From a virus, in IMG/VR virus record IMGVR_UViG_3300035698_007246, positions 159,880 through 223,879 of that record: DNA of 64,000 nucleotides; one strand, written 5' to 3'. This document shows, in pieces, positions 896-61,863 of the stretch (its first letter is position 1; every line of letters starts with the position of its first letter). A model generated the notes under the pieces. That model was not told the DNA's origin, did not search any database, and saw only the letters and a program-made list of their open reading frames with translations. A program made the position numbers and the translations under genes.

Positions 896-1360
896 TTATT
901 CCATTGGTAAAATGTCAATAGAAGTTAATTGATAATCTGTAATAATATTACCATCTGATATAGTACCAACACCACGACACCCAAATTTAATATCGACACC
1001 AGAATTTATTAATGTGTCAACTAATCTCCCTTTTGGTGTATCTATTAATCTCCCATCACAAACAATTTGTTTTCCATTATTCCTAATGGCAGTAATTTTA
1101 TGCGAAACATTTCCAAGATTAATATTTTGGTCTCTACCATCCAATTCACCAAGACATCCCCCACAACTAATTTTTTTTCGACACATATCAATAATAGTAT
1201 CAATGGCTGATTGTGAATATATCCTTCCATTGGCACTGGGTTTACCAATTTCAATGATAACTTCATTTTTAAAAACTTTAAGTTTGTATTCAGGAGAAAC
1301 CGTCTCAATCCTAAATTCAAACACAGATTTGATTTTATTCCAAATATTCTTCATAATCAT
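896..1360 (-). CDS. Degenerate paralog of the T4 gp21-type prohead protease
   Basis: About 154 residues. It matches the prohead protease encoded at 47108-47782 along its core: NGR before the first helix, GELD, VSHKITAI, a TPKG/K-L-I-GGV-type segment and RGVG. T4 gp21 is an S80 serine protease that matures the head, with His in GEL(N/D)HP and Ser before RG(L/V)G. Here the His position is Gly (GELDGRD) and the Ser position is Gly, followed by Cys (FGCRGVG). The protein stops just where the true protease continues into its PSAPSAY segment. It sits among replication and nucleotide genes, not head genes. It is probably catalytically dead and may be a binding or regulatory relative. The start is ambiguous: ATG at 1369 or 1360; the GGAAG is better spaced for 1360. 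Confidence 0.65.
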   Translation of the reverse strand: MIMKNIWNKIKSVFEFRIETVSPEYKLKVFKNEVIIEIGKPSANGRIYSQSAIDTIIDMCRKKISCGGCLGELDGRDQNINLGNVSHKITAIRNNGKQIVCDGRLIDTPKGRLVDTLINSGVDIKFGCRGVGTISDGNIITDYQLTSIDILPME

Positions 1361-2015
1361 AAACTTCATCTTCCAATTTTTTATTTTTAAACTGTTCCAT
1401 TACATCTTCGGCTTTAACTGGCTTTACATTTGTTTTAGTTGGTTCACGGTCAGCTTTTTCTTTTTCAAGCAATAATTTATTCTCATCATATTCATCTGAA
1501 GTCATACCAAGTGCAAGAGCAAGCGATGAACCTTTATGGTCATCACTCAGTTTATCTAAAAATTCATCAATGACTTCATCCGCATTTTTATCAATAACAC
1601 CATCATCACCAGGAACACAAATTTCGGGTTTTACTTTGCCTTTGGTATCGGTTGATTGTAATTGTTGGAAGAATTTATCAAATATTTTGCCTTCTTTACA
1701 TTCTTGTAGTTTTTCTTTCAATGCTCTATTGACAAGTTCATTAAAAGTTATATCATGTTCATGTGCTATTGTAGCAAGATAACTGAATTCATGGTCACTT
1801 AATCCAAGTTCAATCTTTTCAGTACAATTTTCAGAATCATAATCATTTTCGATTCCAACATGGTCATCAAAATTTACAGGATATCCACATGCTTGAAGAA
1901 ATGATTTAAACATTTCACACAAGTCATCCATTGTTGCGTCATTATTTTCTGTTGATATCTGAACATCACTTTCAAATACAACACCATCATTTGCAGTCTT
2001 TACAAATTTAAACAT
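1335..2015 (-). CDS. Hypothetical protein with an Arc-like ribbon-helix-helix segment
   Basis: 226 residues from the ATG at 2015, chosen because GGAGGAAAGAAA lies directly upstream; a longer reading to 2048 lacks such a site. Residues of about 80-105 (LSDHEFSYLATIAHEHDITF then NELVNRALKEKL) fit the strand-helix-helix pattern of ribbon-helix-helix DNA-binding proteins, a segment common in T4-like phage proteins of unknown role. The rest is acidic and Lys/Glu-rich with predicted helices near the C-terminus (residues 185-226). The last 26 bases overlap the next gene. A regulatory or DNA-binding role is inference only. Confidence 0.6.
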   Translation of the reverse strand: MFKFVKTANDGVVFESDVQISTENNDATMDDLCEMFKSFLQACGYPVNFDDHVGIENDYDSENCTEKIELGLSDHEFSYLATIAHEHDITFNELVNRALKEKLQECKEGKIFDKFFQQLQSTDTKGKVKPEICVPGDDGVIDKNADEVIDEFLDKLSDDHKGSSLALALGMTSDEYDENKLLLEKEKADREPTKTNVKPVKAEDVMEQFKNKKLEDEVYDYEEYLE

Positions 2016-2283
2016 TTTCTTTCCTCCACGCGTCATTATTATAATCATTTATTTCACTCATGGTCTCTTCAACCATAAAAATTTCTATTTTATAAACATG
2101 TCCATCTGTTGCATATGATTTTTTGATTTCGGTCACTTTACATGTATCATATGGCAAAGAAGGATGAGAAATATTCTCACCTTCTTTTGGTATAACTGGA
2201 AATGAAAAATCAATCATCATATTATCTATTTTTGGTTCTGGTGATTCTTGGTTATATTCTTCAATCAGACATACACAATTCAT
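2008..2283 (-). CDS. Hypothetical protein, 91 aa
   Basis: Starts at an ATG that touches the stop codon of nrdJ (TAATATG), so it is probably translated by ribosomes finishing nrdJ. An upstream extension to 2355 would overlap the end of nrdJ in another frame and is not chosen. The sequence is beta-rich (IDFSFPVIPKEGENI, TCKVTEIKKSY, YKIEIFMVEE), resembling small phage proteins with a repeated-strand fold. It overlaps the start of the next gene by 8 bases. The family is not recognised. Confidence 0.6.
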   Translation of the reverse strand: MNCVCLIEEYNQESPEPKIDNMMIDFSFPVIPKEGENISHPSLPYDTCKVTEIKKSYATDGHVYKIEIFMVEETMSEINDYNNDAWRKENV

Positions 2284-2284
2284 A

Positions 2285-5200
2285 TTAAGCCCCACATCCA
2301 GAATATCCACAATCATTACAAACAAAACATCCACTTTGCATAGCAATACTATCACTTTTACATGTAGGACATATCATTCCGACTATTGTTGTACCATTAT
2401 CAATTGTTTCAGATACAAATTTTCTAATTGCAGTTAATAATGTTGATACATTGTCGCCTTCAATACCTTGTAATGAAACAAGAATATCTTGTCGTGCTAT
2501 GTTATGTCTCAAACAAAGACTAACCATTCTACCCAATCTATTTGCATTAGTATCACCAAGGCATTTGTCCCAGGTGTCTTCTACAATCTTAACACTAATT
2601 CCACAGTCAATAGCAAGCACACATAAACTTTTACAAGCCTTAGTACATGCTCTTGTATCATTTTTAGAATTTGTGTTAATCCACAGTGCCATTGGATACT
2701 TCATATCAACATCATCAGGGAAGTAACTGAAATTAATGTAGAATTTCATCCCTTCACGTTTAATCGTCCTTGTAGGGCCGTTAATGAAGGTCTCAGGGAG
2801 TTTTACGCCCTTCTTTATGATAGTTTTTTCCTCTTCAGCACTTTCAATCTTAGAAAGAACGGATTCCATAGAACCTGTACGGTATGTTGTTACACCAATG
2901 AGTCCTTTTTTCCATGCTTCAAAATATAATTCTTTAAATTTTTCAAATGAATATTTATTTGGTAAATTTATTGTTTTCGAAACAGACTGATTACAGTAAT
3001 ATTGAACTACTTCTTGAATGTTAAGATGGTCTTCAATTTCCAAATCATCTGTTGTGACCAAGAAATCAGCTTTCTTATGTTCTGGATAATTTTCAAGAAT
3101 CCAAGCATAACCATAATCACAAAGCGTATACATTTCACACAAACCTCTATTATGCGGTTCGTAGTAATATTTTGTTCCTTCATAGTATCCCTCCCAGTAA
3201 GTAAAATCCTTTTTCTTTTTTTCTTTAAGGATTGTTTTTACATTATCGGAATTCATGCCTTCAGGAAAAGCACATATCACTTTTCTCTCAGATTTCAAAT
3301 CAAACACAGGTTCAATTCCATTTGATACATTATCACACACCACAGATGAATTACCTAATGGTGGATTGGTTGTGGTTTTAGCATTTCTGAGACCATATTG
3401 TTTAATTAATTCTTTTGTTTCATCTGTTAATCTATCAGATTTGAAATAAGGTGTCTGACTAAATAAATCATAATTGTATAATGGGAATGACCCTTTTTCT
3501 TTAGCCAATAATGCACTTGATTGCATTGTAATGTTTTCCTTAAGTTGTTTAATTTTTTTAGTAAACGTAACAGCTTCTTGTGAGTTATATTTAATACCCA
3601 ACATAACCAATGTAGAACCTAATCCATTAATACCCATACCAAACTGTCTTAGATTTTCTACAGCCCATGCATATGATGGTAATGGCAATTCAGTCAAATC
3701 ACACACATTATCTAACATTCTTGAGTATGTAACGATGTCTTTTTTATACAATTCCAAATTAAAGTATGGAACATCATTACGGATTTCTACATACATTGTC
3801 AAATTAAGTGAACCTAATAGACACACAGTAGACATTATTGGATTACCTGGTATCTCACCACATCCTCGACTCACATACCCTTCGGTATTCCAATCATCAG
3901 CAGTTGGTTCATGCAAATCATAAACATCACCAAATCCAAGAAATTCAATTTCTTTTATTTTAGTTTTCCACTTATTTCCTGTTAATGATGTAGTTTTGAT
4001 AATTTGTTTTAATTTTTCATTTTTTTCATCATGACTAAGTTTATGTACAAATTTATAAAAATTTAAAATTGAATCATTATCAATAACACCTTCAAAGATA
4101 TCATGCCGCCTCACAACATCACGTCCATATATTTTTGCTGTCTCACCTTTTTTACCACACAAATATTTCTTATAATCACACCCTGCGGTAAGCATTATAT
4201 GTTTTACCAATAAATGTAATTTTTCTGATATATTTTTAAATCTAACTTGTGGATATCGAGAAGTTAAATTCACATTCCCATCAGATGAAATTAACCCATC
4301 TATCAATCCAGATAAAAAATCATCATTAAAGTTTAACAATTTCATAACATCAAAATTGGATTTATCATTAGCATCAATACCGAAAACATCAAATAATAGT
4401 TTAATCTTCCCTTCGGTATTTATAGCATAATATCTCTCACAATTTCCATCAGATTTATCGATTCTATAATCAAAACCAAACCTGTTATACAATTCAATTA
4501 TATAATCATTATTTTCATTTGAATCTGTTGATATATTAAAGTTTTTATAATTAGAAAAACATCCATCTCCAAAATATAATCCAAATAACATTCCAACATC
4601 TCTGATGTCGAATAGTTGCTCGCCATTTATAGCATCAACAGATATTACGCCATTATCCACACATGATGGATTATACTTAATCATATCATAAGGTTGTTTT
4701 CTTACGTTATCACCAACATTTAAATATTTTAAACGTGTGTTATTGTCCCACCGTTTTCTATTTTCTGATGTTCCATTTTGAGTATGAAAAATATGACCTT
4801 CAGTTACACCCTGATAAAACCCATCTGTGAAATGAACTCTATAAATTGGCTGATTTTCATGAACTTCTATATTATCAACACTACCATGCCCTAACGTTGT
4901 TTGAATTTCTTCACCGACTTTTACATCTTCAACTCGTTTTAGTCCGTGTTTAGTAGCTACTAATGTTCCTTTTACAACACAAGGATTTGTAGCATTACAT
5001 TCACCCAAATAGAGAATTGGGTTGTTTTTATTCATGTTATCAACGAATACTATACCCGGTTCAGAGCGATTGTATGTAGATTTCATAATAAGGTCGTAAA
5101 GTTTCTTAGCTTTCACACGTTTTACTACTTTACCATTCCATATTAAGTCCCACATAGCATTATCAGCAACAGCATTCATGAAATCATCACTCACTGCAAC

Positions 5201-51989: not shown

Positions 51990-52478
51990 ATGAAAATTTT
52001 TGAAAGAAGTATTATTGATGAAATTGATGGAATGATTAATGAAAGTTATCTTTTTGAAAGATATACATTCCAACCAGTGAGCGAATATAATGCAGATACA
52101 AATGTTTCATTTGATGTTTTTAATGGTGATGAGAGAATTGCTTCTGTCAGAATTGTAAAGACTGATGGTGAACCATTAGACGCTGTAAATGACACATATG
52201 ATTATGATGATGTCTATGCTGACGTTTCATTAGAACTTGCTGGAAAAGAAGATGAATATGACGTTGAATCCGTAAAGAAATGGGTTCTCGGAAAATTGTC
52301 AACAATGGGGTTTGATAAAAACCCAGCGAAAATTGATGACGAAGAATATGACGTTTCTAAGTATAAAGAAGAAATCGAAGATGAATCACCTGATAGAGAA
52401 TTTGATGACGTTAGAAGTGATGTCGAAGATACCGATGATGGAGAAGGATTTTCTTTAAGTGACTTAGAAGAAGAATAA
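51990..52478 (+). CDS. Hypothetical acidic protein, 162 aa
   Basis: RBS CGGGAGGACACTA. Starts with a short helix (KIFERSIIDEIDGMINESY) like N-termini of several head proteins here; then a beta domain (VSFDVFNGDERIASVRIVKT, YADVSLELAGKEDEYDV) and an Asp/Glu tail. Not recognised. Confidence 0.5.
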   Translation: MKIFERSIIDEIDGMINESYLFERYTFQPVSEYNADTNVSFDVFNGDERIASVRIVKTDGEPLDAVNDTYDYDDVYADVSLELAGKEDEYDVESVKKWVLGKLSTMGFDKNPAKIDDEEYDVSKYKEEIEDESPDREFDDVRSDVEDTDDGEGFSLSDLEEE

Positions 52479-52491
52479 AGGATAATTTTTA

Positions 52492-53400
52492 ATGATTACG
52501 TATTACTATCCACGTACATTAAGAAGTATAAGTGTTGCCATACTAAATATGTTTAATGATATGAAAGTCATTAGGTATGATAAGTATGGCAACCCGTTAT
52601 ACGAGAGACATGTACCTATAACATGGGGACCGGTTGAGAAATATCATCTTGACAGAATAGAAAACCATTACGTTGATAGTGATGGTGTTCAACATAACGA
52701 GAAGTATTATTTACAAATACCAAGAATGGCTCTTGTATTAAATGGTATTGCATATGATAGCAGTCGAGCTATTGGTGTGAATCAATGGCGTGGTTGGTTT
52801 AAAGAGTCGTTGAATGTCTCGGATTCAGAAATTGATGATATGGTATCCGATGGGGCTATGTCTATAACAGATTATCAACCAACACCATATAATTATAATT
52901 TCACATTACATATAAAAACTGATTCTACAGATTACCTTGCTCAAATACTTGAGAATATTCTCCCATATTTTAATCCAAAATTACATTTACGGGTTAAAGA
53001 GTTTTCATTTTTAAATATCGAAAGGGATTTGCCTGTTTCTATTGATGGTGTGAATCCAGAATTTGTTGATGATATGGATGAAAATGAGACAAAATTTGTC
53101 AATGCAACAATCAATTTGACGATTGAGGGTTGGTCTTATAGAAAATTTTTATATTCAAAAGTAATTAAATATATCAACAGAAAATATTATTTACAAGATA
53201 CAGGTAAATTTTTAGAGGGATTTAGTGTTAGTGGTGTCAAGACATCAGGTGCAACATCTGAGACCCCAGGAACACCTATCATATTGAGTGCTGTGCCACC
53301 TTTAGATAGTTATTATGTTAGTGGGTATTTTTATGACCCTAACAAAGAGTTTAATTGGTTCCAAACATATCATGATACAAGTGGGTTTGGGATATTTTAA
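52492..53400 (+). CDS. 15: Tail completion / sheath stabilizer protein gp15
   Basis: 302 residues (T4: 272). T4-like start (YYPRTLRSISVAILNMFNDM), then VPITWGPVEKYHLDRIEN, LQIPRMALVLNGIAYDSSRA, YQPTPYNYNFTLHIKT, LAQILENILPYFNPKLHLRV and a C-terminal linker. gp15 caps the tail and locks the sheath, joining gp13/gp14. Next gene is gp16. Confidence 0.82.
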   Translation: MITYYYPRTLRSISVAILNMFNDMKVIRYDKYGNPLYERHVPITWGPVEKYHLDRIENHYVDSDGVQHNEKYYLQIPRMALVLNGIAYDSSRAIGVNQWRGWFKESLNVSDSEIDDMVSDGAMSITDYQPTPYNYNFTLHIKTDSTDYLAQILENILPYFNPKLHLRVKEFSFLNIERDLPVSIDGVNPEFVDDMDENETKFVNATINLTIEGWSYRKFLYSKVIKYINRKYYLQDTGKFLEGFSVSGVKTSGATSETPGTPIILSAVPPLDSYYVSGYFYDPNKEFNWFQTYHDTSGFGIF

Positions 53401-53409
53401 GGAGATATT

Positions 53410-53976
53410 ATGGCTTTGAGTGGAGCACCTATGGATGGTGTATTTGATGGATTGGATGAAGAGTTCAACACCGAATATGATGAAAATATAATTGTTCCTG
53501 AAGATGATGATATGGAAGAAAAGAATCTTCCTGTTGTTGCTAAAAGTAAAGCAGTACAAGTATCTGACGATGTTGTTATTGTTGGAACAGAATATGTATC
53601 TGATGAGATTAAAAGTCTAATTGATTCAAGTAAAAGTGTATTGGGTAGATTGGATTCTACTATTAAAATTGGAGGAGCACCACGATTGTTTGAGGTGTAT
53701 TCCCAATTAACAAATTCGATAACTGCCCAGATAAAAGAATTTAGACACATGCATGAAGCAGTTGCGAAAATTAAATTGGAAGAAAAAAAGAAGAATATTA
53801 ATAAAATAGAAACTGGTGATAATATAACATTTACGTCTGAACAAGTGCTTGATTTGATTATAAAAGAAAAAAATAGAAGTGAAATTGAGACAATTGACGC
53901 TGATTTTGTTGTAGATGATACTGAAATCTTAGATAAACATGATGATGAGGATGACGATAATGTCTGTGTTGTGTAA
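53410..53976 (+). CDS. 16: Terminase small subunit (T4 gp16)
   Basis: 188 residues (T4: 164). Central helices (SKSVLGRLDSTIKIGGAPRL, FEVYSQLTNSITAQIKEFRH, MHEAVAKIKLEEKKKN) match the gp16 oligomer core with its conserved PR(L/H) FEV segment; ends are acidic. It recognises DNA and stimulates gp17. Overlaps the next gene by 17 bases; terL follows as in T4 order 15-16-17. Confidence 0.82.
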   Translation: MALSGAPMDGVFDGLDEEFNTEYDENIIVPEDDDMEEKNLPVVAKSKAVQVSDDVVIVGTEYVSDEIKSLIDSSKSVLGRLDSTIKIGGAPRLFEVYSQLTNSITAQIKEFRHMHEAVAKIKLEEKKKNINKIETGDNITFTSEQVLDLIIKEKNRSEIETIDADFVVDDTEILDKHDDEDDDNVCVV

Positions 53977-54403
53977 ACTTAAATATTTAATAGAGACTGA
54001 TGTCCCTGAAGAACATATTTTTATTAATGTGAGAAATATTGATGATGAAAATGAATCTTTTGTTACTGGTATTGAAAAATTAGAAAATGAAATTGATGAA
54101 TTAGAAATAGATGTCGAAAAACAAGACAACAGATTTGATTATGAGAAGGTCGTAGCTGGCTCAGAAGACATTGAAGTTGATGAAGACTACCATAGGATAC
54201 CTTTTGATGTTAAAGTGGCTAATTTGGGAGATATGGACATCTCTGAATTTGTTAAAGAATACATTGGTGGTAATTTATCAAATAAACAACTATCGTATGG
54301 TGAAGAGGGTGAAATTCAGTTTGAATTGATACCTGTCATGACAATGGTTAAAAAAATTAATGACAACCATGCACGATTTGAAATTGAATGGAATGTTGTA
54401 TAA
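53960..54403 (+). CDS. Hypothetical protein between gp16 and terL, 147 aa
   Basis: ATG at 53960, inside the gp16 end, with GAGG 10 bases upstream; nearby ATGs at 53939-53951 are alternatives. Acidic coiled region (IEKLENEIDELEIDVEKQDN) and a C-terminal beta part (IPFDVKVANLGDMDISEFVK, GEIQFELIPVMTMVKK). Not present in T4 at this place. Function unknown, likely packaging or tail. Confidence 0.5.
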   Translation: MSVLCKLKYLIETDVPEEHIFINVRNIDDENESFVTGIEKLENEIDELEIDVEKQDNRFDYEKVVAGSEDIEVDEDYHRIPFDVKVANLGDMDISEFVKEYIGGNLSNKQLSYGEEGEIQFELIPVMTMVKKINDNHARFEIEWNVV

Positions 54404-54420
54404 AATTAAGTAGGTAATTT

Positions 54421-54807
54421 ATGTTTCAAGGTAATGTAGGATTGCGAGCTGAAGGTGAGCTGGTAACATATACAAAAGAAATAATTAATGAATATATTAG
54501 ATGTAAAGAAGATATAATCTATTTTGCAGAAAAATATTTTTACATAACAACAATCGATGATGGTAAAATAAAAATACCATTGTGGGATTTTCAGAAAAAA
54601 GTTTTAAAGGCGTTTATAACACCGCCTAAAAACAGAAGGCATATAATAATGATGATGCCACGCCAGCAGGGTAAGTGTTTTTTAGATACAACTATAGTGA
54701 AATTGAGAAACAAAAAGACTAAAGAAATCAAAGAGTTACCAATAAAAGAATTTTTTGATATGATTATAGAAAATTATAAAAAGACACATAATGATAAAAA
54801 TGCCTAA
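54421..54807 (+). CDS. terL: Terminase large subunit, N-terminal half, fused to a split-intein N fragment
   Basis: 128 residues. 1-85 are the start of a gp17-type ATPase: YTKEIINEYIRCKEDIIYFA, LWDFQKKVLKAFITPP, MMMPRQQGK, the first part of Walker A. C86 (CFLDTTIVKLRNKKTKEIKE) begins an intein block A; 43 intein residues follow, then a stop. The rest of the ATPase is at 57132-58403. Trans-splicing would join GK to TT and restore PRQQGKTT. Alone it cannot package DNA. Confidence 0.88.
   Translation: MFQGNVGLRAEGELVTYTKEIINEYIRCKEDIIYFAEKYFYITTIDDGKIKIPLWDFQKKVLKAFITPPKNRRHIIMMMPRQQGKCFLDTTIVKLRNKKTKEIKELPIKEFFDMIIENYKKTHNDKNA
54676..54804 (+). mobile_element. Split-intein N fragment (43 aa)
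   Basis: Starts with the nucleophile Cys of block A and ends at a stop after 43 residues. It is much shorter than the roughly 90-120 residues of ordinary split inteins, so the break is upstream of block B, as in the atypically split TerL inteins reported from metagenomes. Confidence 0.85.
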
Positions 54808-54834
54808 ATAACTAAGGATGTGTTTTGGAAAATG

Positions 54835-54858
54835 TATAAATACTTCTAACTATAAATA
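54835..54858 (+). promoter_or_regulatory. Two late promoters before the terL-interrupting genes
   Basis: Exact TATAAATA at 54835-54842 and 54851-54858, 43 and 27 bases before the endonuclease ATG. They would let genes after the break be expressed independently of the first half. Confidence 0.55.
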
Positions 54859-54884
54859 TAATTTAAAAATTTGGAGTATTAAAA

Positions 54885-56084
54885 ATGATAGAAGTTTATG
54901 TTTGTGAAATGTGTAAGATGGAATTTACAGTTAAAAGAGGTTTGAAAAATCACAACAAAAGATTCCACCCTGAATTGTTTGCATACAAATGTGAAATGTG
55001 TGGAGAATTAGCTGAAGATTTAAAAGGTTTATTGATTCATGTGACTAAGAAACACAAAAATGCTGAAGAATATTTTAATAAATATTTATCAGGTAAAGAA
55101 AAATGTAGATATGAACATTGTAATGAGGCTTTAGAATACAATAATAGGTTTAGTGGGTATTATTGTTGTCAGTCACATTATGAAGCACAAAAGAAAATTA
55201 ATAATGGTATTAAATTGAATTTTATATGTCAAATTTGTGGTTCTGGGTTCGAAGATGTTGGTGGATTACAGCAACATTTAACAAAGATACATAAATTTGA
55301 TGTTATTAAAAATAAAGAATATTATGATAAATATTTAAAAATAGAAAATGAAGGATGTTGTTTATATTGTGGTAAAGAATTAAATTTAGTTAAAAATAGA
55401 TTTACTGAAGGTTATATGAAGTTCTGTTATAATACAGAATGTAATGTCCGTTGGTATAATGAAAATGATAATAGAATTGATAAAATGTCAAATTCATTAA
55501 AACAGACACATCATGATAACCCAGAAATTTCTCCATTAAAAAAAGAATATTGGATGAGTAAAGGTTATTCTGAAACACAAGCAATTGAAAAAGTTTCAGA
55601 AAGACAAACAACATTCAGTAAAGAAATTTGTATTGAAAAATATGGTGAAGATGATGGTATTAAAAAATGGCAAGATAGACAAGAAAAATGGCTTGATTCT
55701 ATGCCAAGAATGAATTTTTCTAAAATAAGTCAAGAATTATTTTGGGGGATTTATAAACATATTAAAGATAGATATAAGAATGTGTATTTTGCGAGTTTTG
55801 TTGGTGGTGATAGAGATGATAGTAAAAATAGAGAATATCGCATAAAAACAAATAGGTCATATAGATTATTAGATTTTTATATTGAGGATGTCAATAAATG
55901 TATAGAGTTTGATGGAACATATTGGCACGGTGAAATAGGTAGAGGCAACAGAACTCGTGATGAAGATAGGACAATTGAAATTTTGGAGGTTAATCCAGAT
56001 ATGAAAATATTTAGAGTAAAAGAAGATGATTACAATAAAGATAAAGAAAAAGTAGTACAAGAATGTATTGAATTTTTAAATTAA
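54885..56084 (+). CDS. Zinc-finger plus Vsr-like homing endonuclease between terL halves
   Basis: 399 residues; RBS TTGGAGTATTAAAA. N-terminal 185 residues have several C2H2/CxxC fingers (CEMCKMEFTVKRGLKNHNKR, CEMCGELAEDLKGLLIHVTK, CQICGSGFEDVGGLQQHLTK, CCLYCGKEL). Residues 275-399 form a nuclease domain with LLDFYIEDVNKCIEFDGTYW, HGE, an EDxHD/Vsr-like pattern, and KIFRVKEDDY. This type of free-standing endonuclease between halves of a split-intein gene is known from fractured genes. It would cut intein-free terL. Confidence 0.82.
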   Translation: MIEVYVCEMCKMEFTVKRGLKNHNKRFHPELFAYKCEMCGELAEDLKGLLIHVTKKHKNAEEYFNKYLSGKEKCRYEHCNEALEYNNRFSGYYCCQSHYEAQKKINNGIKLNFICQICGSGFEDVGGLQQHLTKIHKFDVIKNKEYYDKYLKIENEGCCLYCGKELNLVKNRFTEGYMKFCYNTECNVRWYNENDNRIDKMSNSLKQTHHDNPEISPLKKEYWMSKGYSETQAIEKVSERQTTFSKEICIEKYGEDDGIKKWQDRQEKWLDSMPRMNFSKISQELFWGIYKHIKDRYKNVYFASFVGGDRDDSKNREYRIKTNRSYRLLDFYIEDVNKCIEFDGTYWHGEIGRGNRTRDEDRTIEILEVNPDMKIFRVKEDDYNKDKEKVVQECIEFLN

Positions 56085-56096
56085 TGGGAGTTAGAT

Positions 56097-56780
56097 ATGA
56101 ATAATATTGAAGAAATCTTGAATTGCGTCGATGATGTTGGATATTTTGCTAATAATTATATTCAGCATATAAATATTGATGTTGGTTGGAAACAATTTTC
56201 ATCGTATAAATTTCAAGACATACTGTTGAATTATATGCATAGTATTCCATATAAGAAAGATGTTTTAGTTGGGTTGTTACCAAGACAAATGGGAAAAACA
56301 CTTTTAGAAATTATTTATCTTATTTATTATGTAACTTTTAATAATCATAAAAATATAATATTTTGTGGATATAAAGGTATAGTATTAGACCGGATAATTA
56401 CTAATTTTTTAAAATCATATGAAAAATTGCCAGAATTTTTAAAAAAAGATATTGTGAAAGATGACAAACATAATATTAATATTGGTAATAATAAAATATC
56501 GTTTGTTGTTGCTAATTATGTGTTTGATGACGATTGTGAAGATGAAAAAATAGATTTAGGAATTTTTGATGAATGTTTTTTAAATAATGGTATTAGTAAA
56601 TTTGAAAAGATTATTATACTATCAACAAAAAATATAAAAAAAGAAAGTTTTGGTGACAATTGTTATATGGTTAAAATAAATTGGTGGGAACACCCATATC
56701 ATGATATTGAATGGAAAAATTCATCTGTACAAAATTTAACTGAAACAGTATTTGGTAGTGAATATGATAATCGTGGATAA
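56097..56780 (+). CDS. Stand-alone paralog of the terminase ATPase domain
   Basis: 227 residues; RBS GGGAGTTAGAT. Parallel to TerL over the whole ATPase region: EEILNCVDDVGYFANNYI, FQDILLNYMHSIPYKKDVLV, a complete, intein-free Walker A (LLPRQMGKTLLE), YLIYYVTFNNHKNIIF, LGIFDEC as Walker B, IIILSTKN as motif III, and WWEHPYHDIEWKNSSV equal to TerL's SWKEHPKRDQEWKDEI. The nuclease domain is absent and the stretch between Walker A and B is shortened. ATP-binding residues are all kept, so it may be active. Role unknown: spare copy, regulator or cargo. Confidence 0.78.
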   Translation: MNNIEEILNCVDDVGYFANNYIQHINIDVGWKQFSSYKFQDILLNYMHSIPYKKDVLVGLLPRQMGKTLLEIIYLIYYVTFNNHKNIIFCGYKGIVLDRIITNFLKSYEKLPEFLKKDIVKDDKHNINIGNNKISFVVANYVFDDDCEDEKIDLGIFDECFLNNGISKFEKIIILSTKNIKKESFGDNCYMVKINWWEHPYHDIEWKNSSVQNLTETVFGSEYDNRG

Positions 56781-56786
56781 ATAACT

Positions 56787-57131
56787 ATGGGAAAGATAAT
56801 AGAGTCATATGGTGTAGATGATTGGGAAGTATTGACTGATGATGGTTGGGTAGACATCCAACAAATACATAAAACAATTAAATATGATGTGTGGAAAGTA
56901 AAAACAAAAAATCATTTTTTAAAATGTGCTGATGAACATATTGTAATTGATAAAGATTATAATGAGGTTTATGTTAAAGATTTAAAACGTGGTGATAGAA
57001 TAATAACTGAATCTGGTGCAGAAAAGGTTATATCTGTTAAAAAATTAAAATGCAATTCCGAGAATATGTATGATATGTCGATTGATTCTGATACTCACAC
57101 ATATTTTACAAATGGTATATTATCACACAAC
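56787..57131 (+). mobile_element. Split-intein C fragment (115 aa)
   Basis: Contains block B (CADEHIVIDK), block F (ENMYDMSIDSDTHTYFTNG) and the canonical end ILSHN before Thr+1. No endonuclease domain. Together with the N fragment it makes a 158-residue mini-intein at PRQQGK/TT. Confidence 0.9.
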
Positions 57132-58403
57132 ACAACCATTTCAACGGTATATCTCTTGCATTACATGTTGTTTAATAAAGATAAAAATGTTGCTATACTT
57201 GCTAATAAAAAAGACACTGCTTTAGAAATTATGCAACGTGTGAAAATGGCATTTGGATTGTTGCCATTGTGGTTACAACAAGGAATCAAAGAAGGTGGAT
57301 GGAACAAATCATCTATCAGATTTGAAAACGGAATGGTGATGAAGGCTTCGACAACATCATCTGATTCTATTTCCGGGGATGTTGTCTCACTTCTATATAT
57401 GGATGAGTTTGCTAAAGTAAAACCTCATATTGCTGAAGAGTTTATTACTGCGACTTACCCTGTTATTACATCGGGTAAGACATCTAAAATTATCATGGTG
57501 TCAACACCCCTTGGAATGAATCATTTTTATGAATTTTGGACTAATGCAGTAAGAGGTCCAGAACGTGATGGGAATAACTTTTATCCAATCAAAGTTAGTT
57601 GGAAAGAACATCCCAAACGTGACCAAGAATGGAAAGATGAAATACTTAGAGATATCGGACCTACCAGATTTAACCAAGAATTTGGGTGTAAATTCTTAGG
57701 TTCAAGTGATACATTGATTGATGGGGATGTTCTTGAAAATATTGCATATAAACCATCTGTTGCCACAAAATGGGGTGGATTATTTACAATATTTGAAAAA
57801 CCTGTTGAAAAAGCGTTGTATGTTCTTGGGGTTGACTCAGCTAAAGGGACTGGAAGAGATAGTTCTGTTATTCAAGTACTTAGAATTATTGATGAATTTT
57901 CTATTGAACAGGTTGCGATATACCGATATAACAATATTGATACTCATAAATTTTCTCAGGTTTGTATTGGCATAAGTAAATATTATAACAATGCGTATAT
58001 GATGATTGAAAACAATGGTGAAGGTGGAGAAGTAGCTAACATCATTTGGTATGAGTATGAAGAGGAATGTGTTTTAAATTGTGATAAAAAAGGACTTGGA
58101 ATTAGGTCAACTAAGAAAAGTAAGTTATCAGCTAATTTACATTTAAAAAGATATCTTGAAAATGGTTGGTTACGATTAAATGACAAAGAGACAGTTGTTG
58201 AGCTGTCAAAATATATAGAAGTGACACCTAATGTGTTTAGAGGTGAAACTCGTACAACACATGATGACTGTGTAACCTCTTTATTATGGGGCTTATATTT
58301 TTTATTGACACCATTTTTTGATGGTAAAGATGTGGGTGTTAAGAACATAGACAGTAAGTATGATTTAGGGGATGATGACGCTCCTTTGGTATTTTTTTCA
58401 TAA
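56787..58403 (+). CDS. terL: Split-intein C fragment fused to the terminase large subunit C-terminal half
   Basis: 538 residues: 1-115 intein C fragment, 116-538 TerL. After TT comes ISTVYLLHYMLFNKDKNVAI, LLYMDEFAKVKPHIAEEF (Walker B), IIMVSTPLGMNHFYEFWTNA (motif III), then an RNase H-fold nuclease with YVLGVDSAKGTGRDSSVI, MIENNGEGGE and THDDCVTSLLWGLYF supplying the acidic residues. Spliced protein would be about 508 residues (T4 gp17: 610). No good RBS before ATG (GGATAAATAACT), which is odd for a gene that must match its partner. Confidence 0.9.
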   Translation: MGKIIESYGVDDWEVLTDDGWVDIQQIHKTIKYDVWKVKTKNHFLKCADEHIVIDKDYNEVYVKDLKRGDRIITESGAEKVISVKKLKCNSENMYDMSIDSDTHTYFTNGILSHNTTISTVYLLHYMLFNKDKNVAILANKKDTALEIMQRVKMAFGLLPLWLQQGIKEGGWNKSSIRFENGMVMKASTTSSDSISGDVVSLLYMDEFAKVKPHIAEEFITATYPVITSGKTSKIIMVSTPLGMNHFYEFWTNAVRGPERDGNNFYPIKVSWKEHPKRDQEWKDEILRDIGPTRFNQEFGCKFLGSSDTLIDGDVLENIAYKPSVATKWGGLFTIFEKPVEKALYVLGVDSAKGTGRDSSVIQVLRIIDEFSIEQVAIYRYNNIDTHKFSQVCIGISKYYNNAYMMIENNGEGGEVANIIWYEYEEECVLNCDKKGLGIRSTKKSKLSANLHLKRYLENGWLRLNDKETVVELSKYIEVTPNVFRGETRTTHDDCVTSLLWGLYFLLTPFFDGKDVGVKNIDSKYDLGDDDAPLVFFS

Positions 58404-58428
58404 ATATGTTTAGGTCAATGAAAAAATG

Positions 58429-58448
58429 TATAAATAATTATATAAATA
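58429..58448 (+). promoter_or_regulatory. Paired late promoters of the tail sheath gene
   Basis: Exact TATAAATA at 58429-58436 and 58441-58448, 34-53 bases before the gp18 ATG. Confidence 0.6.
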
Positions 58449-58481
58449 GAAAATAGATATTAAATTTGGGAGGTAATTAAT

Positions 58482-60374
58482 ATGCCAAGAGTATTTAACA
58501 CTCCGGGTGTGTATAGACGAGAAATAGACTTAAGTGAAATACTTATAGCTACCGGCATTTCAAATGGTGCCATCGTTGTACGTTCATCGCAAGGACAAAT
58601 AAGAAGACCTGTATTGGTTTCAAATGATAAGGAATATGTAGAACAATTCGGTCAACCTGTGTTCACATCAGGAAGCGGATTATCTGGTATTGATAAACTC
58701 ATTCCTGAATATGGATACGGTTCTTATGGAGCATTAGAATTTTTAAAAGAATCAACGAATCTTTACGTTGTGAGAGCGTTTGATAGTGGTGATGTGTATG
58801 CAGCAATGGGAGTTGGTGTTACTTTATCTGCTGATGATACTGATATTAGTGGAGGTATTGACCCATTAACGGCCACACCAGATGTTTTTGATACACGGGA
58901 TAACATCTCAAGTATTAATGAAATCGGTGATAGTATGACTGGGGCATTATTTGCGTCATTCATAAGTCCGGGTGAAGCAGGTAATGAATTTGCTTATAAT
59001 ATTGAAACATTACATCCAGACGCTGATTGGATATATCGTTATGATGAATATCCAACAGATAGTTCTGCAACAACAAATGGTCCGGGTTCAATTTGGACAT
59101 CAGGAACAAGTGCTGATATTGCAACACATTTTCCAATTGCAAGTAAAGTTTTTAAAATTAAACTTTATAAACGACCAGTTGATAAAATTTGGAATGATTT
59201 GTATTCAAATTCAGCAGACGCTGAAAATAAAAGATTAAGATTACAAGAAGTCGAATCATATTATTGCACATTGGGTCCTCAATTGGACGCTGATGGAAAA
59301 TCATTATATGTTGAAGATGTTGTAAATGGCAATTCACAATCCATTTACATGCAATCAAATATAAGTTCAATATTGGCTTATTCATATACGTTCTCAGGAA
59401 CAAGTGGTTTTTCTAATCTTCCGGGTGGTGAAGATGACGCAGGTGCTTATTTTTATAACACAACAAGATTATGTCAACTATCAGGTGGTACTGTAACCCA
59501 ATCTAATGGTTTGGGTAGTGGTGATGATGAATTCTGGGCTTATTTTAATGACAGAGAAGAAATTCCTGTTCAAATATTGGTTGGAACAAGTTATAACACA
59601 ACTACAAAACAAGCTATGGGTAACCTTGCAGTTAAGAGACTTGACTGTATTGGAACTGTACAAGCAGGAGAACTTGATGATATAACATATCAAAGAATTA
59701 TTGAATCAGAAAGATATGGGTATGTGTCTCCGTCATATATTGCTATTTATGGTGGTTATTCAAAAATTTATGATAATAATAATGACAAGTTTGTATATTT
59801 ACCGAATAGTATTTATGGTGCGTCATTGTACCCACGTATAGATAATATTTCAGACCCTTGGTATGCTCCGGCAGGTATTGACAGAGCAACACTATCTGTG
59901 TTTGACCAACGTAAGATATACAGTGCAGAACATATAGGAAAACTATATGATAAGAACATCAATATGGTGAGATTCATTAGAGGTTCAGGATTCGTAATGT
60001 GGGGTCAAAAAACTGCACAATTAAAGAAATCTGCCCTTGATAGAATACAAGTAAGAAGATCTTTATTGTTTATTGAAAATAATATTGAGATAGCATTGCT
60101 TCCATTTGTTTTTGAAAATAATACAGTACAAACTCGTTTACGTGTTTGGTCATTGATTGATGAATTTCTTGCAGGTGTATTTGCAGCAGGTGGTCTTACT
60201 AAGTATGAAGTTGTTTGTGATGAAACAAACAATCCATTATCTGTAATTGACGCAAATCAATTAAACGTGGATATATATACACAGCCGGTACGCACATCCG
60301 AATTTATACAGTTTACTACGGTCGTAACTCGTACAGGTATCAGCTTCAGTGACTTGAGACTTAAATACGCGTAA
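58482..60374 (+). CDS. 18: Tail sheath protein (T4 gp18)
   Basis: 630 residues (T4: 659); RBS TGGGAGGTAATTAAT. The contractile sheath. Typical start PGVYRREIDLSEILIATGIS, ILVSNDKEYVEQFGQP-like segment, EYGYGSYGALEFLKESTNLY, VVRAFDSGDV; C-terminal VRFIRGSGFVMWGQKT, RIQVRRSLLFIENNIEIALL, FEFVNN-like and TTVVTRTGISFSDLRLKYA. An endonuclease gene now separates it from gp19. Confidence 0.92.
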   Translation: MPRVFNTPGVYRREIDLSEILIATGISNGAIVVRSSQGQIRRPVLVSNDKEYVEQFGQPVFTSGSGLSGIDKLIPEYGYGSYGALEFLKESTNLYVVRAFDSGDVYAAMGVGVTLSADDTDISGGIDPLTATPDVFDTRDNISSINEIGDSMTGALFASFISPGEAGNEFAYNIETLHPDADWIYRYDEYPTDSSATTNGPGSIWTSGTSADIATHFPIASKVFKIKLYKRPVDKIWNDLYSNSADAENKRLRLQEVESYYCTLGPQLDADGKSLYVEDVVNGNSQSIYMQSNISSILAYSYTFSGTSGFSNLPGGEDDAGAYFYNTTRLCQLSGGTVTQSNGLGSGDDEFWAYFNDREEIPVQILVGTSYNTTTKQAMGNLAVKRLDCIGTVQAGELDDITYQRIIESERYGYVSPSYIAIYGGYSKIYDNNNDKFVYLPNSIYGASLYPRIDNISDPWYAPAGIDRATLSVFDQRKIYSAEHIGKLYDKNINMVRFIRGSGFVMWGQKTAQLKKSALDRIQVRRSLLFIENNIEIALLPFVFENNTVQTRLRVWSLIDEFLAGVFAAGGLTKYEVVCDETNNPLSVIDANQLNVDIYTQPVRTSEFIQFTTVVTRTGISFSDLRLKYA

Positions 60375-60376
60375 TA

Positions 60377-60384
60377 TATAAATA
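60377..60384 (+). promoter_or_regulatory. T4-type late promoter of the 60.5-kb endonuclease
   Basis: Exact TATAAATA; expected start 60390 is the first base of the leader's outer stem. Confidence 0.6.
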
Positions 60385-60389
60385 ATAAA

Positions 60390-60477
60390 GAGAGGGACAG
60401 TGGGTAGCTCCTATTTCCTGAAACCTTTACGAGTAAGGATTACCTCTCAATTTTAAAAATCAGTAAAGGAGATTATA
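60390..60477 (+). promoter_or_regulatory. Structured 5' leader, copy C, pairing with the RBS
   Basis: Outer stem GAGAGG (60390-60395) with CCTCTC (60443-60448). CCTTTAC (60424-60430) pairs exactly with GTAAAGG (60463-60469) of the RBS. TTTCCTGAAAC and AGTAAGGATTAC are shared with A and B. Confidence 0.6.
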
Positions 60478-61269
60478 ATGAAAGATGAAAAAAGATTTTA
60501 TGTTTATGTGTATCTTGACCCAAGAAAACCGGGAAAATATAAATATGGTGAATATGAATTTGAATATGAACCATTTTATGTTGGTAAGGGATGTGGGAAA
60601 AGATGGAGATATCATTTAAATGAAGCTAAAAATAGAAATGAAAATAATTATAAGTTAAATAAAATTAGAAAAATTATTAATGATTGTGGGATTGAACCAA
60701 TAATTATTAAATATAAAGAAAATTTAGATGAAAATGTATCATTAAATCTTGAAGTTGATATGGTTGATAAAATTGGAAGAATTATAAATAATAATGAAGG
60801 ACCTCTTGTGAATATAACCGATGGTGGTGAAAAATTTTCAGGATTGAAAAATGATTTGAATGGACGGTGGAAGGATGTTGATAAAAATTTGATATTTGGT
60901 TTGTATGAAAATGGAAAAAGTATTGAAGAGATTGCATTGATAACTAAAACAACTATACCATTAATTCGTAGACGAATTATATATTGGGAATTGCCAATAC
61001 GTAAAGATATTAATATTGGAAGAAAAAAATCTATTAAATGCAAAGAAAAAATATCAAAATCTAAAATTGGGTTATATGGTGAGTTAAATGCGAATCATAA
61101 ATATGTTTATACATTTGTTTCGCCAGATAATCATAAATATAAATTTAAAGATATAAATAAATTTTGTAAAGAATATAATCTTAATTATGGAAGTATAAGA
61201 AAATCTTTTAAAAGAAATTCTGAATATTATAAAGATTGGAAAATAGAAAGAAGATTAATTTTAAAATAG
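60478..61269 (+). CDS. GIY-YIG homing endonuclease
   Basis: 263 residues. Nuclease domain 5-110: FYVYVYLDPRKPGKYKYGEY, FYVGKGCGKRWRYHLNEAKN (GIY-YIG with catalytic Arg in GKRWRYH), LEVDMVDKIGRI with Glu, LVNITDGG. A middle helix-turn-helix (LYENGKSIEEIALITKTTIP) and a C-terminal NUMOD-type HTH (DINKFCKEYNLNYGSIRKSF) would bind DNA. Inserted between gp18 and gp19, 103 bases after gp18. Confidence 0.88.
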   Translation: MKDEKRFYVYVYLDPRKPGKYKYGEYEFEYEPFYVGKGCGKRWRYHLNEAKNRNENNYKLNKIRKIINDCGIEPIIIKYKENLDENVSLNLEVDMVDKIGRIINNNEGPLVNITDGGEKFSGLKNDLNGRWKDVDKNLIFGLYENGKSIEEIALITKTTIPLIRRRIIYWELPIRKDINIGRKKSIKCKEKISKSKIGLYGELNANHKYVYTFVSPDNHKYKFKDINKFCKEYNLNYGSIRKSFKRNSEYYKDWKIERRLILK

Positions 61270-61278
61270 GAGGAAATT

Positions 61279-61863
61279 ATGCCGGGTAATTCAGATAACT
61301 TCACTATAGAAGGTCGTATGAAAAGTCAAGCTGACATTCAGAGAAATTGGATGTGGCAACTACTTATACCAGGAATTATTACTGTTGCTCCAACTACTGC
61401 ATTATTGGACATGGAAGATTTACTTGTCCGTTGTAGAAGTATGAGTATACCACCACGTTCAAACCAAGTAACGCAATCTGACTTTATGGGGATGAAGCAA
61501 TTCTTTCCGGGTAAGCCTGATGTTGGTGGTACTGTGAATGCAACGTTTGAGGAAACTGAAGATATGGCTGTAAGGCGTATTTTCTGGGAATGGGAACAAA
61601 ACATATTTAATGTTAATCCGTTGAGTCCATTGACTGCTGGTAAGTCAAGAAGACCATTTAAACGTGCATTAACAAAAGATATTTATTTGATGTTTTTTGG
61701 ATATAATGGCGAACCTCTTGCTAAATCAATAAGATTTCATAACGCATTTGTGCAAAGTGTTGCAGATGTTGCGGTTGATTATGGTGCAGGTGCTGCGGTT
61801 CAATATACAGTAACATTTCAATATGATTTCTGGACATTGTTCCCTGATACAACACAACCTTAA
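61279..61863 (+). CDS. 19: Tail tube protein (T4 gp19)
   Basis: 194 residues (T4: 163); RBS ATAGGAGGAAATT. Forms the inner tube. MEDLLVRCRSMSIPPRSNQV, SDFMGMKQFFPGKPDVGGTV, EETEDMAVRRIFWEWEQNIF, LYFGYNGEPL-like and a QYTVTFQYDFWTL end match gp19. Confidence 0.88.
   Translation: MPGNSDNFTIEGRMKSQADIQRNWMWQLLIPGIITVAPTTALLDMEDLLVRCRSMSIPPRSNQVTQSDFMGMKQFFPGKPDVGGTVNATFEETEDMAVRRIFWEWEQNIFNVNPLSPLTAGKSRRPFKRALTKDIYLMFFGYNGEPLAKSIRFHNAFVQSVADVAVDYGAGAAVQYTVTFQYDFWTLFPDTTQP

What the first reader, a model, noticed from the sequence alone, without database searches (positions are those of the whole stretch)
54421..58403. Fractured terL: atypically split intein in the P-loop with an intervening endonuclease gene
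terL is two genes. The first ends 43 residues into an intein (C86 start); the second starts with a 115-residue intein remainder ending ILSHN before Thr. Joining the exteins gives PRQQGKTT, a perfect Walker A, so the only way to an active terminase seems to be protein trans-splicing. The split lies before block B, unlike ordinary split inteins but like the TerL inteins (AceL-TerL, VidaL types) known from lake metagenomes. A Vsr-like endonuclease between halves fits the fractured-gene arrangement described by Dassa and colleagues. A whole phage locus with neighbours is rare.
Basis: partly seen in the sequence, partly recalled or inferred. Interest (0 to 1): 0.9.

Follow-up and report, generated by a model that had tools for sequence, protein, structure and literature searches.

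The report
Phage terminase rebuilt by split intein
This phage makes its essential DNA-packaging motor as two separate proteins that must be stitched together by a split intein sitting in the motor's ATP-binding loop, with a homing endonuclease gene and an unexpected second motor-like ATPase gene between the halves; the arrangement belongs to a known kind, but the extra gene and relatives with the motor in three pieces are unusual.

Summary
terL is fractured: 85 extein residues plus a 43-residue IntN (Cys1), then a 115-residue IntC (block-B His, penultimate His, Asn) plus 423 extein residues starting with Thr. Joining the exteins restores PRQQGKTT and a 508-aa T4 gp17-type terminase. No other complete TerL or intein was found in the 223,879-b contig; two other metagenome assemblies confirm the locus. 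Trans-splicing is by far the best explanation.

The site is the classic Lys|Thr P-loop insertion, homologous to contiguous inteins in Ackermannviridae TerL; Campylobacter phage F379 has the same fractured layout three residues upstream. By insertion site it is not the AceL/Cat/GOS-TerL type: those take +1 Cys, and Cat matches a different TerL site in relatives. The split position resembles AceL/GOS, not VidaL.

Huge phages carry analogous ATPase-only TerL paralogues lacking the Walker A lysine. New member of a known kind, with an unexplained cargo gene.

The parts
53410..53976 (+). small terminase subunit gene (neighbour)
   Evidence: phrog_445 5.2e-6
54421..54675 (+). terL N-extein, residues 1-85, ending PRQQGK
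   Evidence: TerL PHROG match; junction by comparison with empty-site relatives
54676..54807 (+). IntN, 43 residues from Cys1, plus stop
   Evidence: aligned to contiguous Ackermannviridae inteins and to L004, L015, L019
54835..54858 (+). two TATAAATA late-promoter-like motifs
   Evidence: 33 in window against 14.4 expected; same motif at the same place in L004; promoter use is inferred
54885..56084 (+). zinc-finger endonuclease gene (399 aa), probable homing endonuclease
   Evidence: zf-C2H2 2.3e-7, MTES_1575 0.0028, phrog_3339 homing endonuclease 9.4e-4
56097..56780 (+). ATPase-only TerL homologue (227 aa), Walker A PRQMGKT and Walker B IFDE intact, no nuclease domain
   Evidence: phrog_5989 5.5e-22, T4 gp17 by sequence and fold
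56787..57131 (+). IntC, 115 residues ending SHN
   Evidence: 319 phage records with a relative, best 50% identity; PT-HINT
57132..58403 (+). terL C-extein, residues 86-508, starting Thr, plus stop
   Evidence: T4 gp17 5e-51; Terminase_6N and 6C

Best explanation
A mobile, atypically split class 1 intein interrupts terL at the classic P-loop position (Gly-Lys | Thr). The N-half (extein 1-85 + IntN 43) and the C-half (IntC 115 + extein 86-508) are translated separately, the downstream genes probably from late promoters just after the N-half. IntN and IntC associate, Cys1 and Thr+1 carry the acyl shifts and Asn115 cyclises, giving a 508-aa packaging ATPase-nuclease with a restored Walker A. The zinc-finger endonuclease between the halves probably cuts intein-free terL alleles at this site and spreads the element by homing. 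The 227-aa ATPase-only TerL homologue is a passenger or accessory gene of foreign origin, not a recent copy of this terL. Shown by sequence: anatomy, homology, intact splicing residues, purifying selection, mosaic exchange. Inferred: splicing, cutting, promoter use, role of the ATPase-only protein.
For: Anatomy and motifs. Contiguous homologues of the same intein at GK|TT in Ackermannviridae TerL, 36-50% identical over IntC. Lys|Thr is described as the classic P-loop intein site in mycobacteriophage TerL (PMC5050341). Empty-site relatives. IntN and IntC under purifying selection (pN/pS 0.18-0.42), also in L015 and L019 where the endonuclease is lost. Recent exchange: window and L019 are nearly identical over the 3' part of IntN and just beyond its stop (about 54697-54825; IntN pS 0.14) while flanking exteins are at pS 0.55-0.70. 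No other complete TerL or intein found in the held contig; no Rfam intron in the region. Late-promoter-like motif enriched and present in the gap.
Against: No splicing or cutting experiment. The contig is linear and may be incomplete, so an intact terL outside it is not excluded. Block B reads Ala-x-x-His instead of Thr-x-x-His, although most site-A homologues compared share this. Two family searches of the own contig missed known pieces: PF17289 missed the nuclease domain and PF14890 missed this intein, so those negatives have little weight; the Terminase_6N search and my own TerL and intein profiles did find the known pieces and nothing else.
Confidence: 0.93

Rival explanations
1. terL is a decaying or dead gene: the halves no longer splice and another terminase, encoded outside the contig or by a co-infecting phage, packages the DNA.
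For: The contig ends are open; splicing is untested; the ATPase-only gene has low-confidence loops around Walker B.
Against: All splicing residues and all TerL motifs are intact; IntN and IntC have pN/pS well below 1 across five loci; the layout recurs in many phages, cultured ones among them.
Confidence: 0.04
2. The exteins are joined at RNA level: the insert is an intron, and the Hint similarity is incidental.
For: Phage terL genes with introns are known (ICP1, PMC10448857; IBB_35 reported with an intein and an intron).
Against: No Rfam match at E up to 0.1 in 52000-61500; both flanks encode a complete, conserved intein in frame, with its own start codon for the C-half.
Confidence: 0.02
3. 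On the ATPase-only gene: it is a working part of the system (motor regulator, interference with rival phages, or decoy for TerL-sensing immunity) rather than a passenger remnant.
For: Walker A and B intact; modelled fold like the gp17 ATPase; analogous ATPase-only paralogues conserved in huge phages (pN/pS 0.20-0.36), one next to a fractured terL; Foldseek also hits the TerL in an Avs3 complex weakly (E 0.13).
Against: No diverged copy of this gene exists in the data, so selection cannot be measured; about 20 residues after Walker B are missing; the huge-phage paralogues have lost the Walker A lysine and are not a supported sister group; other site-A loci lack the gene.
Confidence: 0.35

Closest known systems
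Fractured genes with split inteins (Dassa et al. 2009)
   Same: Essential phage gene in two separately encoded exteins, split intein, free-standing endonuclease gene between the halves
   Different: Here a TerL-like ATPase gene also lies between the halves. The paper was not held, so its details rest on citations and memory
Campylobacter Firehammervirus TerL (F379; an intein in TerL also reported for IBB_35, PMC3322345)
   Same: N-half, endonuclease, C-half with the break in the Walker A; IntC about 43% identical
   Different: Break three residues upstream (PRQ|S, +1 Ser), a different endonuclease, no ATPase-only gene
Ackermannviridae TerL P-loop inteins (Kuja, VP-1, 2050H1; Magnus reported in PMC6763660)
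   Same: Same site GK|TT, homologous intein, +1 Thr
   Different: Contiguous in the examples read
AceL-TerL, GOS-TerL, Cat-TerL
   Same: TerL, short IntN, split after alpha1 (S2)
   Different: +1 Cys; Cat matches the intein at QEFG|C in relatives (1.1e-8), while the window C-half has no Cat hit at E up to 1
VidaL
   Same: Atypically split, Cys-dependent; weak similarity to IntC (E 0.022)
   Different: 16-residue IntN, S1 split
Mycobacteriophage TerL1-a P-loop inteins (PMC5050341)
   Same: Insertion between P-loop Lys and Thr
   Different: Different terminase family (terminase_1); described as inteins within TerL, not as fractured genes, in the passages read

Membership tests
Class 1 split intein | Cys/Ser at position 1, block-B His, penultimate His, C-terminal Asn, Cys/Ser/Thr at +1 | tested here: met
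   C86; CADEH; SHN; Thr+1
Class 1 split intein | Two separately encoded fragments that together cover one Hint domain | tested here: met
   43 + 115 aa correspond to the two parts of contiguous Ackermannviridae homologues
Class 1 split intein | Trans-splicing activity | not testable with these tools
   needs co-expression of the two halves
Fractured gene with split intein | Essential gene split, free-standing endonuclease-like gene between the halves | tested here: met
Fractured gene with split intein | Endonuclease of the Vsr/EDxHD-like family | tested here: inconclusive
   Pfam MTES_1575 E 0.0028 here and 2.5e-5 at best among four aligned relatives; below the curated cut-off for the window protein; Foldseek saw only zinc fingers
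AceL/GOS/Cat-TerL inteins | Same insertion site, +1 Cys | tested here: not met
   Thr+1 in Walker A; Cat type matches the QEFG|C site of relatives
AceL/GOS/Cat-TerL inteins | Split at S2, after alpha1 | tested here: met
   by alignment IntN ends just after the segment KEFFDMIIENYKK, taken as alpha1; S2 is defined in PMC13014065
VidaL | IntN of 16 residues, S1 split | tested here: not met
   IntN is 43 aa
T4 gp17-type TerL (spliced product) | Walker A, Walker B, coupling motif and RNase H-like nuclease domain | tested here: met
T4 gp17-type TerL (227-aa gene) | ATPase and nuclease domains | tested here: not met
   ATPase domain only

The most novel reading that the evidence does not exclude
Free-standing ATPase-only TerL paralogues are a functional class in large phages (motor regulators, packaging interference against rivals, or decoys for TerL-sensing immunity), and this phage carries one with intact ATPase motifs inside its fractured terL element.
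Probability: 0.2. Interest if true: 0.75.

Novelty: new member of a known kind. Interest (0 to 1): 0.5.

Why it matters
It gives sequence for a naturally split intein at the P-loop of T4-type TerL with a Thr+1 acceptor and a 43/115 split, plus relatives at every stage of a homing cycle (empty, with endonuclease, endonuclease decayed). Relatives L019, L025 and L030 encode TerL in three genes that would need two dissimilar split inteins, a natural three-piece ligation that could be useful in protein engineering. The embedded ATPase-only TerL gene, with counterparts in huge phages that have lost the Walker A lysine, raises a testable question about packaging regulation or immune evasion.

Tried and rejected
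RNA intron instead of intein: no Rfam match in 52000-61500 at E up to 0.1. ATPase-only gene as a recent duplicate of own terL: 26-32% identity to TerL homologues and an unplaced long branch. ATPase-only gene as a known defence protein: no PADLOC match. Close relatives of it: only the same phage in viral contigs, none in genome contigs. Nuclease fold of the endonuclease by AlphaFold/Foldseek: mean pLDDT 63.9, only zinc fingers matched. Dassa 2009 is not in the library. A first tree run failed on a thread setting and was repeated.

Full report
Observation. The window is bases 159880-223879 of a 223,879-b IMG/VR virus contig. terL lies in T4-like order: sheath stabiliser, TerS (phrog_445, 5.2e-6), an unknown 154-aa ORF, terL, tail sheath. 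The N-half (54421-54807) carries 85 extein residues ending PRQQGK and 43 residues starting Cys; the C-half (56787-58403) carries 115 residues ending ILSHN and 423 extein residues starting Thr. Joined exteins give 508 aa with a perfect Walker A and the expected ATPase and nuclease motifs. The C-half matches T4 gp17 over the extein (5e-51). Two other assemblies reproduce the locus.

Between the halves lie two genes. The first is a 399-aa protein with C2H2 zinc fingers and a C-terminal segment resembling restriction-like or homing nucleases (MTES_1575 E 0.0028, phrog_3339 9.4e-4). It keeps PRQMGKT and IFDE, lacks the nuclease domain, and has lost about 20 residues after Walker B.

Related terL loci. 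A scan gave 33 loci, one of them the same phage. Their TerLs use three intein sites. Site A (GK|T) is the site of this finding. Site B (MVS|C...|TP, the coupling motif) holds contiguous inteins with a long, LAGLIDADG-endonuclease-like insertion, judged by reading, not by a family search (L012, L013, L015). Site C (QEFG|C...|CKF) holds split inteins, with an HNH-like or another endonuclease-like gene between the halves where one is kept (L014, L025, L027). Site-C IntC of L018 matches the consensus Cat intein (PDB 6dsl, 1.1e-8), so the AceL/GOS/Cat type, which takes +1 Cys, most likely belongs at site C rather than at the site of this finding. L019, L025 and L030 have both A and C split: TerL in three genes. 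L018 has A, B and C, with the B intein frame interrupted.

Homing cycle. Site A is empty in L005, L006, L007, L009, L014 and L016; filled with an endonuclease gene in the window, L004 and L010; filled with a decayed or lost endonuclease in L015, L018, L019 and L025. IntC pN/pS is 0.18-0.31 and IntN 0.26-0.42, also where the endonuclease is gone, as expected if terL function depends on splicing. Window and L019 share nearly identical DNA over the 3' part of IntN (IntN pS 0.14) while flanking exteins are at pS 0.55-0.70, a mosaic pattern consistent with recent exchange.

Cultured relatives. 319 phage records hold an IntC relative. Kuja, VPALA, 2050H1 and VP-1 have contiguous inteins at the same GK|TT; Magnus is reported to carry a TerL intein. 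Campylobacter F379 has N-half, endonuclease and C-half with the break at PRQ|S. Vibrio vB_VmeM-32 has its N-half at 79947-80624 (-) and its C-half at 1102-3216 (+), plus a Walker B intein. So the arrangement is known in kind. PMC5050341 calls the Lys|Thr position the classic P-loop intein site.

Expression. TATAAATA, the T4 late promoter consensus (from memory), occurs 33 times against 14.4 expected; two copies lie between the N-half stop and the endonuclease, and L004 has TATAAATACTT at the same place. The downstream genes probably have their own late promoter; this is inference.

The ATPase-only gene. It is not a recent copy of the resident terL. Its GC3 (0.137) resembles the two endonuclease genes (0.11 and 0.153), not the neighbouring TerS, terL extein and sheath genes (0.19-0.24). 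Two comparable cases turned up: L062/L063 (a 462-kb phage record), directly downstream of a fractured terL with an endonuclease 37.6% identical to this one over 184 residues, Walker A SRQMGIS; and L064/L065/L066 (a 735-kb record and relatives), Walker A KSRQMGIT in all three, pN/pS 0.20-0.36. These lack the Walker A lysine but are conserved. With the L062 copy as query, 2,113 phage records gave 2,116 places, so second TerL-like places are rare at that sensitivity, though nearby places may have been joined. Whether the window copy works is open; I put more weight on a passenger.

Limits. No wet-lab evidence; contig ends are open; host unknown. No cultured phage record reaches 60% identity to the C-half. 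TerL fragments were joined in scripts only to describe the phage protein.

Noticed in passing
L019:3726-6717; L025:3220-6714; L030: terL encoded in three genes, with split inteins at the P-loop and at QEFG|C; a functional TerL would need two separate trans-splicing reactions.
   Followed up: partly
L018:1-4831: terL with inteins at three sites (P-loop, coupling motif, end of ATPase domain); the middle intein frame is interrupted between 1914 and 2049.
   Followed up: partly
L062:6542-7351, L064:2358-3527, L065:5001-6182, L066:5001-5714: ATPase-only TerL paralogues in huge phages with the Walker A lysine replaced by Ile, conserved between contigs.
   Followed up: partly
L014:3214-3654, L016:5243-5734: Orphan Hint/intein-like ORFs just upstream of terL genes whose P-loop site is empty; no Cys1 start and no normal HN end.
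   Followed up: no
KU160494.1 (L040, L055): Vibrio phage vB_VmeM-32 terL halves lie about 77 kb apart on opposite strands of the linear record; the C-half also carries a Walker B intein.
   Followed up: partly
L062:4564-6447 and L060:3908-6172: IntC ends SSQ (Gln) and NLN (no penultimate His), unusual C-terminal residues for splicing.
   Followed up: no
L014, L018, L025 against L027 (site C): The same site-C split intein is paired with different endonuclease types (HNH-like or restriction-like), suggesting endonuclease replacement.
   Followed up: no
window 60478-61269: GIY-YIG endonuclease-like gene after the tail sheath gene (LEM-3_GIY-YIG 2.9e-9).
   Followed up: no
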